From: Bacteriovorax sp.
Lineage (GTDB): Bacteria > Bdellovibrionota > Bacteriovoracia > Bacteriovoracales > Bacteriovoracaceae
Direction of reading: 5' to 3'
Length of the DNA stretch: 64,000 bases
Assembly: GCA_014378525.1 (NCBI GenBank)
Contig: JACMNL010000020.1
Location: forward strand, 1 to 64,000
Of this stretch, positions 27,857 to 32,796 are shown piece after piece. The translations under genes and the position numbers were made by a program. Position 1 is the stretch's first letter; each line of letters begins with the position of its first letter. The notes below the pieces were generated by a model, which was given only the letters and a program-made list of their open reading frames with translations, was not told where the DNA came from and searched no databases.

Positions 27857-29041
27857 TTATAGAGTTAGGATATCTATATAAGAGTCATGTTTGTAAGTCA
27901 TCTCTTCGAACTCAGATTTCACCTCTGACAGAAGTGTAATTCCGCCTCCAGCTTGATAACTCAAAGTAGAGTTTTCGAAATCAATTACACTAGAACGGAT
28001 ATTAATAGATGCTTCAATGGCATGTTCAGAAAAAACAATTGTAGATCCACAATAGAATCCACGCGCGCGCGATTCGAGTTTTTTTAAAATTTGCATCACT
28101 CTTTTTTTAGGAGCTCCGGTAATACTTCCGCCGGGAAAAATTTTTTCTAATATATTTTTTAATGTTACTTCATCACTGAGTTCAACCTGAATCTCTGAAT
28201 ACTGATGAATCAGCCCTGGAACTAAAAGAGGCGCTTTTTTTTTCGTCACAATTGCTCGCGGAAGATCAATCCTGCACAGGTCATTTCTTAAAAGATCAGT
28301 GATCATGTAAAGCTCGCCTTCACTTTTTTTATCATGACGAAGATCATGCCAGAGTTTTGCAATTTCCCTGGAAGATGAGCTCACTCTCTTTAGCGTTCCT
28401 TTTATTGGTCTCGTAAGAAGAGTCCCCTTTGAATACTGAAACAAACACTCCGGCGAATTACTCAAAAACATTTTATCCAGATGTCCGCAATAAGTGGCAG
28501 ATCCATAGGCTCCACGCAAAACTTGATTTTTCCATAGCGCAGAAATAAAATCTTCCGGAGAAAAATCTTCATCAAAGGAATAACGATACTCACCAGTCAG
28601 ATTAAACTGATAACAATTACCTTCAGTGAGTTCTCTATATCCTGAATCAAATTTTTCTTTATACTCTTGAAAATGAGGTGCATCGATAAGAGATAAATTA
28701 ATCTTGTGAGTTCCTGCGAGCTGGTCATAATGATGAAACTTTGTGTACTCGATATCAATGGCCAGCATATCAGTTGAAAGAATTTCTTCAGATAAATTTT
28801 CAAAGAAAAATCCCAGTTCATAAAAAAGATGCATCACTCTTAAATCATTTTTCTGATCAATGACTTTAAACTTCAGAGTTTCAATCCACCCTTCAATCTC
28901 AAATTCATGAGATTCGCCGGTGATCAAATCAATGTAATGATTTTTAAAATATGCACGTGCACTTTTAGCTTCAGTAAATTTTAGAAGTCGATCCTGATAA
29001 GGAATAATGGTGAATAGATTATTGTCCGTCACGGAAAGCAA
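27857..29041 (-). CDS. pabB: Aminodeoxychorismate synthase component I
   Basis: This enzyme converts chorismate with ammonia to 4-amino-4-deoxychorismate, a folate precursor. The 394-residue protein belongs to the chorismate-binding family. The PIKGT lysine motif, typical of PabB rather than TrpE, precedes the DLLRNDL block and the FPGGSITGAPKKRVM block. The final GGGIT and helix are present. The start is uncertain. No ATG is near; TTG 29041 or GTG 29032 are the options, both inside the end of dnaB, so the genes overlap by up to 23 bases and are probably coupled. No pabA or pabC partner is in view. Confidence 0.88.
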   Translation of the reverse strand: MLSVTDNNLFTIIPYQDRLLKFTEAKSARAYFKNHYIDLITGESHEFEIEGWIETLKFKVIDQKNDLRVMHLFYELGFFFENLSEEILSTDMLAIDIEYTKFHHYDQLAGTHKINLSLIDAPHFQEYKEKFDSGYRELTEGNCYQFNLTGEYRYSFDEDFSPEDFISALWKNQVLRGAYGSATYCGHLDKMFLSNSPECLFQYSKGTLLTRPIKGTLKRVSSSSREIAKLWHDLRHDKKSEGELYMITDLLRNDLCRIDLPRAIVTKKKAPLLVPGLIHQYSEIQVELSDEVTLKNILEKIFPGGSITGAPKKRVMQILKKLESRARGFYCGSTIVFSEHAIEASINIRSSVIDFENSTLSYQAGGGITLLSEVKSEFEEMTYKHDSYIDILTL

Positions 29042-30365
29042 GGTTTTCGAAGCTGGTATAAGCTCCTACCCACGCAAGTTTAGCAGTCCCTATTTCACCG
29101 GCACGGTTTTTACCAATGATAATTTCGGCAACACCCGGCTCTTTTGTATCGGGGTAATAAACTTCATCACGGTAAACGAACATTACGATATCCGCATCCT
29201 GCTCAATGGCTCCAGATTCACGAAGGTCGGCAGTTGACGGGCGTTTGTTGGGTCGTGATTCAACACCACGGTTAAGCTGAGAAAGTGCAATGACCGGACA
29301 ACCAAGTTCCTTTGCCATAGTTTTTAAACCACGGGAAATTTCCGCAATCTGTTGCTCTCTTTGAATATTCTTATTCACTGATCCCATAAGCTGCAAGTAA
29401 TCGATGACGATTAAACCAAGCCCCTGATCAGCTTTAATTTTTCTACACTGAGATTGAATATCTAAAATCGTCGTGTTCCCTGAATCGTTGATGAAAATCG
29501 GAAGTGCAGAAAGCTCTTGGGTAGCTTTAGCAATCGATCTTAAATCTGTATCGAGAAATGCTTTTTTACGTACCCGTTTTGAATCTACTTTTGCTCGTCC
29601 TGTTAGAAGTCTCATCGAAAGTTCCGTCGCTAACATCTCGAGAGAAAAGATCGCCACAGGAAGTCCTGATTGAATACATGAACTGACGGCCACGTTCAGT
29701 GCAAGAGAAGTTTTTCCCATTGCAGGACGTGCAGCTAATACGATCAACTGTCCCGGTTGCATACCGAGAAGAAGTTCATCCAGCTTTGGATATCCAGTCG
29801 AGAGACCCGAGATTTCTCCCATGACTCTTGTCGTGTCTTCCAGTTCTTTTAAGTTTGCTTTCAACGTAGCGTTTAGTTTTACCATCCCGCCGGTTTTTGC
29901 ATCGTTAGTTAATTTAAAAAATTTCGACTCTACATCCTGGATAAAATCTTCAGCGTCTCCGGTAAAAGTTTGTCCCATTTGAACAACTCTCATCGCAGTC
30001 TTGATGATCTCTCTGATGGAGTATTTATCTTTTGTGATTTTCGCGTACTCGTAAACGTTAGCTGAAGAGGCCTGGTCTTCTGTTAAAGAAGAGACAAACG
30101 ATTCTCCACCGATGTCTTCAAGTCTGCCCTGGTCTTTTAGTTTGTTACAAACTGTAACGTAGTCGATGGCCCGGTTAGCGAGAGAAAGGTCTCTGATTAC
30201 ATCAAAGATTTTTCCGTAACGAGGGTCATAAAAATGCGCCTCTTCAATTTGCAGGTTGGAGATTTCATCAAAAGCTGATCCATCAATAATTAGACATCCG
30301 ACTAATGCTTTTTCGGCAAGAAGATCGTGTGGAAGTTCATGAGTATTAGAATTGGGGTTCGCCAT
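29019..30365 (-). CDS. dnaB: Replicative DNA helicase DnaB
   Basis: This hexameric 5'-3' helicase of the replisome is a typical 448 residues. The N-terminal DnaG-binding domain begins HDLLAEKALVGCLI. The RecA-like core has Walker A ARPAMGKTSLALN, Walker B GLIVIDYLQLM and the SQLNRGVESRPNKRP block. No intein is present. It follows rplI after a terminator, and a GAGGT site precedes the ATG. The placement of dnaB after the S6/S18/L9 genes is common in bacteria. Confidence 0.97.
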   Translation of the reverse strand: MANPNSNTHELPHDLLAEKALVGCLIIDGSAFDEISNLQIEEAHFYDPRYGKIFDVIRDLSLANRAIDYVTVCNKLKDQGRLEDIGGESFVSSLTEDQASSANVYEYAKITKDKYSIREIIKTAMRVVQMGQTFTGDAEDFIQDVESKFFKLTNDAKTGGMVKLNATLKANLKELEDTTRVMGEISGLSTGYPKLDELLLGMQPGQLIVLAARPAMGKTSLALNVAVSSCIQSGLPVAIFSLEMLATELSMRLLTGRAKVDSKRVRKKAFLDTDLRSIAKATQELSALPIFINDSGNTTILDIQSQCRKIKADQGLGLIVIDYLQLMGSVNKNIQREQQIAEISRGLKTMAKELGCPVIALSQLNRGVESRPNKRPSTADLRESGAIEQDADIVMFVYRDEVYYPDTKEPGVAEIIIGKNRAGEIGTAKLAWVGAYTSFENLAFRDGQ

Positions 30366-30382
30366 GATTATACCTCAGAAAC

Positions 30383-30408
30383 AAAAAGGACTCCGCGAGC
30401 GGAGTCCT
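30383..30408 (-). terminator. Terminator after rplI
   Basis: The stem GGACTCCGC/GCGGAGTCC on the minus strand is followed by TTTTTG. It separates rplI from dnaB by 17 bases, so dnaB either relies on read-through or has a promoter overlapping this spot. Confidence 0.85.
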
Positions 30409-30430
30409 TCGATTGTAGCATTTTTTCTTA

Positions 30431-31048
30431 TTAGAAAGATCTTAGAAGTTTATCAACTTCAGCTTTTAATCTTTGCTCTTCAGTCATTTCTGCAACTGGA
30501 GTAGCAGTTTCACCTGAAGCTTTTGCTTCAGCAGCTGCTTTTTTACGTGCTTCAGAAGCTTTTAGAGCTTCTTCTTGAGCAAGTTTTAGTTCTTCAGCTT
30601 GCTTAGGATCGATAGAAACTTTAACTTTGAAAGTAGCTTCTACATCCTGGAAAATTTTCGCTTTAGCGTTGAATATTCCAAGACCTTTAATAGGTGACTC
30701 TAAGTGAATTAATCTTCTTTCAACAGATACACCGCGGTTTTCTAGTTCTTTAGAAAGCTCAGCGTTTGTAACTGTACCAAAAAGTCTTCCTGAAGCTCCA
30801 ACTTTCTTGATTAGCTCAAGAGTCATACCTTCAACTTTCTTTTTGATTTCTGTAGCAGCATCTCTTTGAGCTTGAACTTTTTTGCCTAAGCTTTTTTGTT
30901 GAGCAGCTAATAATTTTTTGTTTGAATCGTCAGCAACCATTGCAAGACCATTTGGAACTAGAAAGTTTCTAGCGTGGCCTGCAGATACGTTAACGATTTC
31001 TCCGATGTTCCCTAAAGCAGGAACTTTTTCAGTCAAAATAACTTTCAT
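30431..31048 (-). CDS. rplI: 50S ribosomal protein bL9 with a charged C-terminal tail
   Basis: The first 50 residues (MKVILTEKVPALGNIGEIVNVSAGHARNFLVP) are the L9 N-domain that binds 23S rRNA. They are followed by the long helix and the C-domain (ASGRLFGTVTNAELSKELE). L9 lies at the base of the L1 stalk and helps keep the reading frame. The usual length is near 150; this protein has 205 residues because about 55 Ala/Lys/Glu-rich residues are added at the end. The start overlaps the stop of the DUF2232 gene by four bases, and an AAGGAG site is present. Confidence 0.96.
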   Translation of the reverse strand: MKVILTEKVPALGNIGEIVNVSAGHARNFLVPNGLAMVADDSNKKLLAAQQKSLGKKVQAQRDAATEIKKKVEGMTLELIKKVGASGRLFGTVTNAELSKELENRGVSVERRLIHLESPIKGLGIFNAKAKIFQDVEATFKVKVSIDPKQAEELKLAQEEALKASEARKKAAAEAKASGETATPVAEMTEEQRLKAEVDKLLRSF

Positions 31049-32052
31049 ATAGTATCTCCTTCATCTTTTTTCGTTTTTATAAAAAATTTTCTAAAATCAA
31101 ACCATAAATCAAATATTCCCAGGATTGCCAGGAACTTGCTTGCTAAAATAAAAGTAAAAGCGATGAACAAAGTTTTAATGAATCCTCTGATCTTTAAAAA
31201 CTTTAAGAAGTCGTTGTAAACTCCAAACCCCTGGAAGAGATAAAACACTCCGAGGCAGTATAAAAGATTGCGGCCAATCACTTCCGATCCAACAGGTAAT
31301 CCGTAGTCTGCTCCCACCCATAAAACGAGTGAAAGGATCAACGGGTACACGAAGAAATCAGGAACTTTAAAATGAGTCAGGTCTTTCAGCGAGTAGCTAT
31401 AAAGAACTTTGTATCTCCAGATAATTGAGTTGCGTAAAGTTACATACAAACTTACCCACAATCCAAAAAAGGAAACAGCGAAAATAATAAAAGGAAGTGA
31501 GCTGTAGATATCATTCGTCAAAGCTTCTGGCTTACTTACGAATTCATCAAAGGCCCTCTGTTCCTCTCCAGATACTTCTGAAGAATCTACCTTTTGTTTT
31601 TTCAGTTCCGACATAACAGTACTAACTGACTGGCTGATTTCACCTTTAAGTGAAGTCGGGCTCAATCTGTTAAACGCGATTAAAAAAGATCCACTGATCA
31701 CCACTAAAATTAATCCAGCGTAGGTTAAACCTTTCACCGGGTTAATATTGCGGAAAACAATTTCAGCAACTAAAAGCGCATAGAGAAAGGCCATTAAGTA
31801 CATTCCCGCAATAAAAAGCGGAAAGCCCTTAACCGCGATTGAAGCTGCCCACAAAACTGCAAATGAAATCGCTGCTAATGAGAACGTAACAGTACGTCCG
31901 TATAACAGGAAAGCAATTGCAAGAGGCACAGGAGCAACAATGCTCATTGGACCAAATGAACACAGAGCAACTGTTAAGACCGCAAGGAACAACAGTTTTC
32001 CAACTGAAGCATTGTGATCGAAGAGTTGTGAATGTGATTCAACTTTAGTCAT
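31045..32052 (-). CDS. DUF2232 family membrane protein
   Basis: The 335-residue protein has about eight membrane helices. Its size, helix layout and position between the S18 and L9 genes match the DUF2232 (YybS-like) proteins known at this place in many deltaproteobacteria and Firmicutes. A soluble loop of about 50 residues (about 130-180) lies in the middle. Function unknown. Transcription runs from the S6-S18 gene, and the end overlaps rplI by four bases, so the three are one operon. Confidence 0.8.
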   Translation of the reverse strand: MTKVESHSQLFDHNASVGKLLFLAVLTVALCSFGPMSIVAPVPLAIAFLLYGRTVTFSLAAISFAVLWAASIAVKGFPLFIAGMYLMAFLYALLVAEIVFRNINPVKGLTYAGLILVVISGSFLIAFNRLSPTSLKGEISQSVSTVMSELKKQKVDSSEVSGEEQRAFDEFVSKPEALTNDIYSSLPFIIFAVSFFGLWVSLYVTLRNSIIWRYKVLYSYSLKDLTHFKVPDFFVYPLILSLVLWVGADYGLPVGSEVIGRNLLYCLGVFYLFQGFGVYNDFLKFLKIRGFIKTLFIAFTFILASKFLAILGIFDLWFDFRKFFIKTKKDEGDTI

Positions 32053-32065
32053 GACTAATTACCTA

Positions 32066-32710
32066 CTAAGCTCTGTCTGCCGTACGGTTAGACAGGTAAC
32101 TTGAAACACCAAGGTTTCTAGCGTGCTTAATTGCAGAGTTTGCGAATCTTTGGTGTTTTTTAGAAATACCAGAAACGCGTGCCGGAGAAATTTTTCCGAA
32201 CTCAGAAACTAACCAGTTCCAAGTTTGAGGATCTTTCCAGTCTGCTTTGATTTTCTTAGCTGTGAACCAGCAAGATTTTCTTTTAGCGAATTTTCTTCTG
32301 TCGTCTTCCATATCTTCGAATCCACCTTCATCGTCGTCTTCGTTCTTGTTATCAAGAACTGAACCACGGTAAGTTTTAGATAATGGAGACTTGAAGTTTT
32401 TAACTAGTTCGTCTTTGCCAGCATCGTCACCTAGAACGAAAATTGCCTGACGAAGAACACCTTCGTTAATACCAAAACGACGAACTAACTCAGTGTTAGC
32501 TTTTGTGTTTGACTGGTACATGAAGTAATGGAAGTGACCGTGTTTAGCACCACTTTTGTATGGTTGAGCAAGAGCAAGTCTTCCCCAATCATCAGAGATA
32601 AGAAGTTCGCCTTCGAATCCTTTAAGTGTGTCTTTAACGATCTCTGCGATCTGTGCGTGAGCTTCTGCGCCAAGCTCCGGCTTTGTCACTACTGACAACT
32701 CATAAATCAT
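32066..32710 (-). CDS. Fused ribosomal proteins bS6 and bS18
   Basis: A single 214-residue frame holds two ribosomal proteins. Residues 1-100 are S6: MIYELSVVTKPEL at the start, GHFHYFMYQ in the middle, RRFGINEGVLRQAIFVL at the end. Residues 120-137 are an acidic linker (NEDDDEGGFEDMEDD). Residues 138-210 are S18, with KFAKRKSCWFTAKKI, FGKISPARVSGISKKHQRFANSAIKHARNLG. In other bacteria these are the separate genes rpsF and rpsR, whose products bind each other on the 30S platform. The ATG at 32710 follows AGGGGGA; the frame extends to 32752 only through the leader hairpin. No separate copies are in the window. Confidence 0.92.
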   Translation of the reverse strand: MIYELSVVTKPELGAEAHAQIAEIVKDTLKGFEGELLISDDWGRLALAQPYKSGAKHGHFHYFMYQSNTKANTELVRRFGINEGVLRQAIFVLGDDAGKDELVKNFKSPLSKTYRGSVLDNKNEDDDEGGFEDMEDDRRKFAKRKSCWFTAKKIKADWKDPQTWNWLVSEFGKISPARVSGISKKHQRFANSAIKHARNLGVSSYLSNRTADRA

Positions 32711-32762
32711 AAATCCCCCTGGACTAATAAAAATTAGGTTTGGACCCACCATGGGCCCAAAC
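32711..32762 (-). promoter_or_regulatory. Structured leader of the S6-S18 operon
   Basis: On the minus strand a 10-base-pair stem (GTTTGGGCCC / GGGTCCAAAC, one G-U pair, loop ATGGT, 32738-32762) is followed at once by a second small stem, CTAAT-TTTT-ATTAG. The ribosome site and start codon come next. In other bacteria the S6:S18 complex represses its own operon by binding a leader hairpin with a CCG element. I do not see that exact element here, so an autoregulatory role is inferred from position. Confidence 0.55.
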
Positions 32763-32796
32763 GAGTATGTTTTTTAAAACAGGGGGAAATTTAACA

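What the first reader, a model, noticed from the sequence alone, without database searches (positions are those of the whole stretch)
32066..32710. Ribosomal proteins S6 and S18 are fused in one ORF
A 214-codon frame starts as S6 and ends as S18, joined by an 18-residue acidic linker. It sits where rpsF and rpsR normally lie. The two proteins pair on the 30S platform, so a fusion would force 1:1 supply and stable pairing. I know of no well-studied example.
Basis: partly seen in the sequence, partly recalled or inferred. Interest (0 to 1): 0.8.

Follow-up and report, generated by a model that had tools for sequence, protein, structure and literature searches.

The report
Two ribosomal proteins fused into one
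In almost all members of one family of bacteria (the Bacteriovorax group), two proteins that normally sit side by side in the ribosome, S6 and S18, are made as a single chain; the fusion looks old, functional and still self-regulated, and I found no published description of it.

Summary
The 214-codon ORF at 32066-32710 (minus strand) encodes a complete S6 domain and a complete S18 domain joined by an acidic linker. It is the only S6 and the only S18 found in its 93%-complete genome.

The fusion is not a local oddity. Of 118 genomes of the same family with an S18 hit, 110 carry it in one open frame of at least 200 aa, including assemblies of 1-2 contigs. No S18 hit listed elsewhere in the phylum is fused. 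Five family genomes keep adjacent separate genes, and their S18 retains a CxxC...CxxH zinc-type motif; every fused S18 examined has lost that motif. One further genome has a single stop inside the linker. An RpoB tree allows one fusion event.

The linker evolves as translated protein (pN/pS 0.20). S18 residues that contact RNA in E. coli are invariant in 69 of 69 fused proteins. A strongly covarying hairpin, resembling the E. coli rpsF leader, precedes the gene.

Best explanation: a single-chain S6-S18 subunit that occupies both platform positions of the 30S subunit and represses its own mRNA as one molecule. Linker cleavage, or an extra internal start in this genus, is not excluded. Proteomics would decide.

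The parts
32066..32710 (-). Fused S6-S18 ORF, 214 aa, ATG start, strong Shine-Dalgarno
32441..32704 (-). S6 domain (Pfam PF01250, residues 3-90)
   Evidence: structure match to S6 chains of solved ribosomes
32300..32353 (-). Acidic linker, residues 120-137 (DNKNEDDDEGGFEDMEDD); disordered in the model (123-132 pLDDT below 50); pN/pS of residues 109-140 is 0.20
32108..32257 (-). S18 domain (Pfam PF01084, residues 152-201; TIGR00165 covers 141-205). K195 and R198, equivalents of E. coli RNA contacts K60 and R63, are invariant; the zinc-type motif has been lost
32309..32311 (-). In-frame ATG (Met134) with AGGTGGA upstream: a possible internal start for S18, conserved in this genus only
32733..32767 (-). 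Leader hairpin (stem 32738-32762) with strong covariation across the family; resembles the E. coli rpsF leader hairpin
32714..32721 (-). Shine-Dalgarno CAGGGGGA; in this genus predicted to pair with the upstream CCCCCUG at about 32780-32787
31045..32052 (-). DUF2232 membrane protein, next gene of the cluster (13 bases downstream)
30431..31048 (-). Ribosomal protein L9 (rplI)
29019..30365 (-). Replicative helicase DnaB-like ORF (named from its sequence; conserved neighbour), beyond a terminator-like hairpin at 30385-30410

Best explanation
The gene makes one polypeptide in which S6 and S18, normally a heterodimer that assembles before joining the 30S platform, are covalently linked. The intact chain most likely occupies both binding sites at once, with the flexible acidic linker bridging the S6 C-terminus and the S18 N-terminus. 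Supply is 1:1 by construction, and heterodimer formation becomes an intramolecular event. A conserved leader hairpin upstream most likely lets this single chain repress its own translation, the role played elsewhere by the two-protein S6:S18 complex. SHOWN: the fusion frame, its presence in about 93% of sampled family members, the absence of separate copies, constraint on the linker, invariance of contact residues, and the covarying leader. INFERRED: that the chain stays uncleaved, that it fills both ribosomal sites, and that it binds the leader.
For: Only one S6 and one S18 hit in the genome, both in this ORF. 110 of 118 family genomes with S18 have it in an open frame of at least 200 aa, and S6 hits lie in the same frames. 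Assemblies of 1-2 contigs carry it (G104, G042), so it is not an assembly artefact. Linker pN/pS is 0.20 against 0.24 for S6 and 0.10 for S18; linker lengths vary from 12 to 28 aa, always in frame. K195, R198, W158 and K159 are invariant in 69 of 69 proteins; these correspond to E. coli S18 K60, R63, Y23 and K24, the residues changed in PMC4647458. The AlphaFold model has mean pLDDT 85.6 and pTM 0.81, with only 123-132 below 50; such a pTM is hard to reach unless the two domains are placed confidently relative to each other (inference). Leader hairpin: 98.7% of pair cells form pairs against 70.9% shuffled, 42 double-changed cells against 11.4, covariation score 0.816 against 0.250. A model of it, built from this family, picks the E. 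coli rpsF leader as its best hit in that region (E 0.017 in 301 bases).
Against: No protein-level evidence of an uncleaved chain was available. In this genus Met134 with an SD-like AGGTGGA could give an additional short S18. Separate genes persist in 5 genomes, so the fusion is not essential to the lineage. Leader binding is untested, and the E. coli leader match is weak on its own.
Confidence: 0.82

Rival explanations
1. The fusion is a precursor: the acidic linker is cut during or after translation and separate S6 and S18 enter the ribosome, as ubiquitin-ribosomal protein fusions are cut in eukaryotes.
For: The linker is predicted disordered and is variable in sequence and length between genera (12-28 aa), so a protease could reach it.
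Against: No conserved cleavage motif is visible among 81 linkers. The linker is as constrained as the S6 domain within the genus. No dedicated protease is suggested by the conserved neighbourhood.
Confidence: 0.1
2. S18 is also made separately from an internal start at Met134, so the cell holds both the fused chain and free S18.
For: All 11 genus members examined keep the ATG, most with 4-5 matched SD bases upstream. It sits just before the basic start of S18.
Against: 31 of 82 fused genes have no ATG, GTG or TTG in the linker region and 64 of 82 lack a start with at least 4 SD bases, so the family does not depend on it. Part of the signal is the codons of the acidic linker itself.
Confidence: 0.15
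3. The fusion is a sequencing or assembly artefact, or a degenerate copy with functional genes elsewhere.
For: The window comes from a draft genome of 144 contigs.
Against: No second copy; 110 genomes agree; near-identical genes in independent public assemblies; purifying selection.
Confidence: 0.01

Closest known systems
Bacterial S6:S18 heterodimer (bS6 + bS18) of the 30S platform
   Same: Same two domains, same operon position with L9, and invariant equivalents of the S18 residues that contact RNA and S6 in E. coli
   Different: Made as one covalent chain with an acidic linker; S6 has no free C-terminus and S18 no free N-terminus
rpsF_leader, the S6:S18-binding autoregulatory mRNA element (PMC4647458)
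   Same: Same place upstream of rpsF; hairpin with strong covariation; the family model finds the E. coli leader as its best hit there
   Different: The presumed effector is a single protein; the element is not in the Rfam copy searched as far as hits show, so no formal model test was possible
Zinc-motif (CxxC...CxxH) S18 of the unfused relatives and of many other families in the phylum
   Same: Homologous S18 domain; the first Cys is still present (69 of 69)
   Different: In every fused protein the second Cys and the later CxxH are not kept as a set, so the metal site is lost
Ubiquitin-ribosomal protein fusions of eukaryotes (UBA52, RPS27A)
   Same: A ribosomal protein made as part of a fusion
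   Different: Those are precursors that are cut and join an unrelated protein; here two ribosomal partners are joined

Membership tests
bS18 | Match to S18 family models above cut-off | tested here: met
   Pfam 50 bits against 21; TIGR00165 51.4 against 38.75
bS18 | RNA- and S6-contact residues kept (E. coli K60, R63, Y23, K24) | tested here: met
   K195, R198 and K159 invariant, Y23 replaced by invariant W158
bS18 with zinc motif | CxxC...CxxH | tested here: not met
   Lost in all fused members examined; kept in G019, G058, G059, G060, G064
bS6 | Match to S6 family models | tested here: inconclusive
   Pfam 54.3 bits against 27, met; NCBIfam equivalog 36.1 against 42.9, not met; fold matches S6 chains, TM-score by target up to 0.91
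S6:S18 heterodimer | Both proteins in one complex in the 30S platform | not testable with these tools
   Needs ribosome proteomics or cryo-EM; the model only suggests docking
rpsF_leader | Conserved stem-loop in the 5' leader of rpsF | tested here: met
   Covariation; window match E 2.9e-6, although the window is one of the model's own sequences; fused leaders not used in the model (L029, L040, L093, L025) also match
rpsF_leader | Bound by S6:S18 with repression of translation | not testable with these tools
   Needs binding and reporter assays
rpsF_leader | Shine-Dalgarno placed in the structure | tested here: inconclusive
   Strongly sequestered in the window (P unpaired 0.003 against 0.17 shuffled) but not across the family (0.38 against 0.29)

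The most novel reading that the evidence does not exclude
A whole bacterial family runs its ribosomes with a covalently joined S6-S18 subunit that is at once a two-site platform component and a one-molecule feedback repressor. Its origin coincided with loss of the S18 metal site, so that tethering to S6 may have replaced zinc in stabilising S18.
Probability: 0.4. Interest if true: 0.78.

Novelty: new variant of a known kind. Interest (0 to 1): 0.62.

Why it matters
S6 and S18 are near-universal bacterial ribosomal proteins and a textbook case of heterodimer assembly and two-protein feedback. A natural, family-wide fusion is a ready test of whether they need to be separate molecules, whether heterodimerisation limits 30S assembly, and whether the S6:S18 complex alone suffices as autogenous repressor. 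It also gives a clean family marker and a natural experiment on loss of zinc from the ribosome.

Tried and rejected
(1) Loss of RimK, which in E. coli adds glutamates to the free S6 C-terminus (my own knowledge), was predicted and not found: RimK_N hits occur in 84 of 129 family genomes, this one included. (2) Loss of RimI, the S18 N-terminal acetylase (my own knowledge), could not be judged: the model hits many other acetyltransferases. (3) Internal initiation as the general route to S18 was rejected: start codons in the linker are not conserved. (4) General sequestration of the Shine-Dalgarno by the leader was rejected: observed SDs are slightly more open than in shuffles. (5) Independent fusions: not needed. 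The RpoB tree with all fused genomes plus G071 held together fits better than the tree the free search found (lnL +15, p-AU 0.78); the short S6+S18 tree leaves the base unresolved. (6) G071 as a true ancestral split was rejected: S6 and S18 are in one frame with a single TAA at the position of a linker Glu, S18 has no usual start codon before its conserved part, and its S18 lacks the zinc motif. (7) Rfam search gave no named family for the leader.

Full report
THE OBSERVATION. The ORF at window 32066-32710, minus strand, translates without a break to 214 residues. Residues 3-90 match Pfam Ribosomal_S6 (E 1.6e-14) and residues 152-201 match Ribosomal_S18 (E 3.1e-13). NCBIfam's S18 equivalog is met; the S6 equivalog is found but under its cut-off. 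Between them lies an acidic stretch, residues 120-137. Pairwise, the parts are 43% identical to E. coli S18 over 68 residues and 25% to E. coli S6. Downstream are a DUF2232 protein, L9 and DnaB.

NO SEPARATE COPIES. In the window's own genome (3.6 Mb, 144 contigs, 93% complete) the S6 and S18 models each hit once, both in this ORF.

DISTRIBUTION. Public relatives are titled Bacteriovoracaceae or Bacteriovorax, class Bacteriovoracia, phylum Bdellovibrionota. Of 129 genomes of the class held, all in one family, 118 have an S18 hit, and in 110 of these it lies in an open frame of 203-252 aa. Two more (G110, G120) are cut by contig ends; in G110 the frame still holds the S6 tail. S6 hits lie in the same frames, one per genome, except G074, which has a second S6 on another contig. 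In the rest of the phylum every S18 hit listed lies in a frame of at most 155 aa, that is, separate (that list was truncated). The gene order S6-S18, DUF2232, L9, DnaB is constant in 62 loci of the family, six more show its first three genes, and three of five sampled outgroup loci show S6, S18, DUF2232, L9.

THE EXCEPTIONS. Five family genomes have adjacent separate genes: G019, G058, G059, G060, G064. Their S18 has a long N-terminal extension, rich in acidic residues, ahead of the same basic start, and it retains CxxC...CxxH, as many other families of the phylum do. Every fused S18 examined has lost that set. The association is complete in this sample, but the shared ancestry of the fused group makes it one event, not many. 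Some standalone S18s of the phylum (the f2-f9 genomes sampled) have also lost the cysteines, so loss does not require fusion. In G071 the two parts are in one frame, separated by a single TAA where relatives have a linker Glu; its S18 is of the fused type and it nests inside fused genomes on the S6+S18 tree (97/85). It is a recent interruption or an assembly error.

TREE. With RpoB, fused genomes plus G071 held as one clade fit better than the free search's tree (lnL +15, p-AU 0.78). One fusion near the base of the family is therefore the simplest reading, but the basal order is not resolved.

IS THE LINKER TRANSLATED? Within the genus pN/pS is 0.24 for S6, 0.20 for the linker and 0.10 for S18, with in-frame length changes only. 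Linkers average 20 residues, 33% D/E and 13% K/R. In this genus Met134 with AGGTGGA upstream could start a free S18; across the family 31 of 82 genes have no start codon there, so separate initiation is not the general mechanism.

IS IT STILL S6:S18? K195, R198 and K159 are invariant in 69 of 69, and W158 replaces Tyr in all. These are the equivalents of E. coli S18 K60, R63, K24 and Y23, which PMC4647458 shows to matter for RNA binding or S6 contact. The AlphaFold model has mean pLDDT 85.6 and pTM 0.81; only 123-132 is below 50. The best structure hits are S6 chains, TM-score by target up to 0.91. No solved chain matched both halves among the best 60.

REGULATION. Upstream of nearly every fused gene is a hairpin introduced by CUCG (window 32738-32762). 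On 22 equal-length examples 98.7% of pair cells are paired against 70.9% in shuffles, with 42 double-changed cells against 11.4, and sliding the partner by one destroys it. The hairpins were picked by their pairing, so the percentage is biased upward, but the variety of pair types is not explained by that. A covariance model finds the window element and fused leaders not used to build it (L029, L040, L093, L025), and its best match in the E. coli rpsF region is the rpsF leader (9.3 bits, E 0.017 for 301 bases). PMC4647458 describes that leader as widely distributed and as repressed only when both S6 and S18 are overexpressed. The natural inference is that here one molecule does the job. In the window the SD is predicted to be sequestered (z -4.3), but this is not a family-wide feature.

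MECHANISM. I favour an intact single-chain subunit (0.82). Forced 1:1 supply follows from the gene. Faster or more stable pairing is inferred. Replacement of the zinc site by tethering is speculation that fits the pattern.

NOVELTY. The domains, the operon and the leader are known. The covalent fusion, its family-wide conservation and the link with zinc loss were not found in the literature searched. That library is incomplete, automatic databases may already list the domain architecture, and other phyla could not be scanned.

Noticed in passing
L074 (G071:C61), reverse-strand offset about 2200: Fused-type S6-S18 gene interrupted by one in-frame TAA at the position of a linker Glu, with no usual start codon for the S18 part before its conserved core: recent nonsense change, readthrough or assembly error.
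   Followed up: partly
G000:C30:5493-5774 and 83 other family genomes: RimK-type ATP-grasp proteins persist although the free S6 C-terminus, RimK's target in E. coli, no longer exists; they may act on another substrate.
   Followed up: partly
S18 of G019, G058, G059, G060, G064 against all fused members: Zinc-type CxxC...CxxH motif of S18 is kept only where S18 is a separate gene within this family.
   Followed up: yes
L073, L076, L077 upstream of S6: In the split genera g21 and g22 the leader hairpin differs (GCACAC...GTGTCC or GTGCGC-type arms instead of GCTC...GGGC), suggesting a diverged regulatory element.
   Followed up: no
G074:C102:487-744: A second S6 hit (189-aa frame, stronger than the fused copy) on another contig; contamination or a real extra S6.
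   Followed up: no
loci upstream of the fused gene, e.g. L025, L094: A recurrent TGnTAnnTT (extended -10-like) and ACATTTA motif lie 5' of the leader hairpin; probably the promoter and transcript start.
   Followed up: no
window 30385-30410, minus strand: Strong terminator-like hairpin between L9 and DnaB, probably ending the ribosomal protein operon.
   Followed up: no
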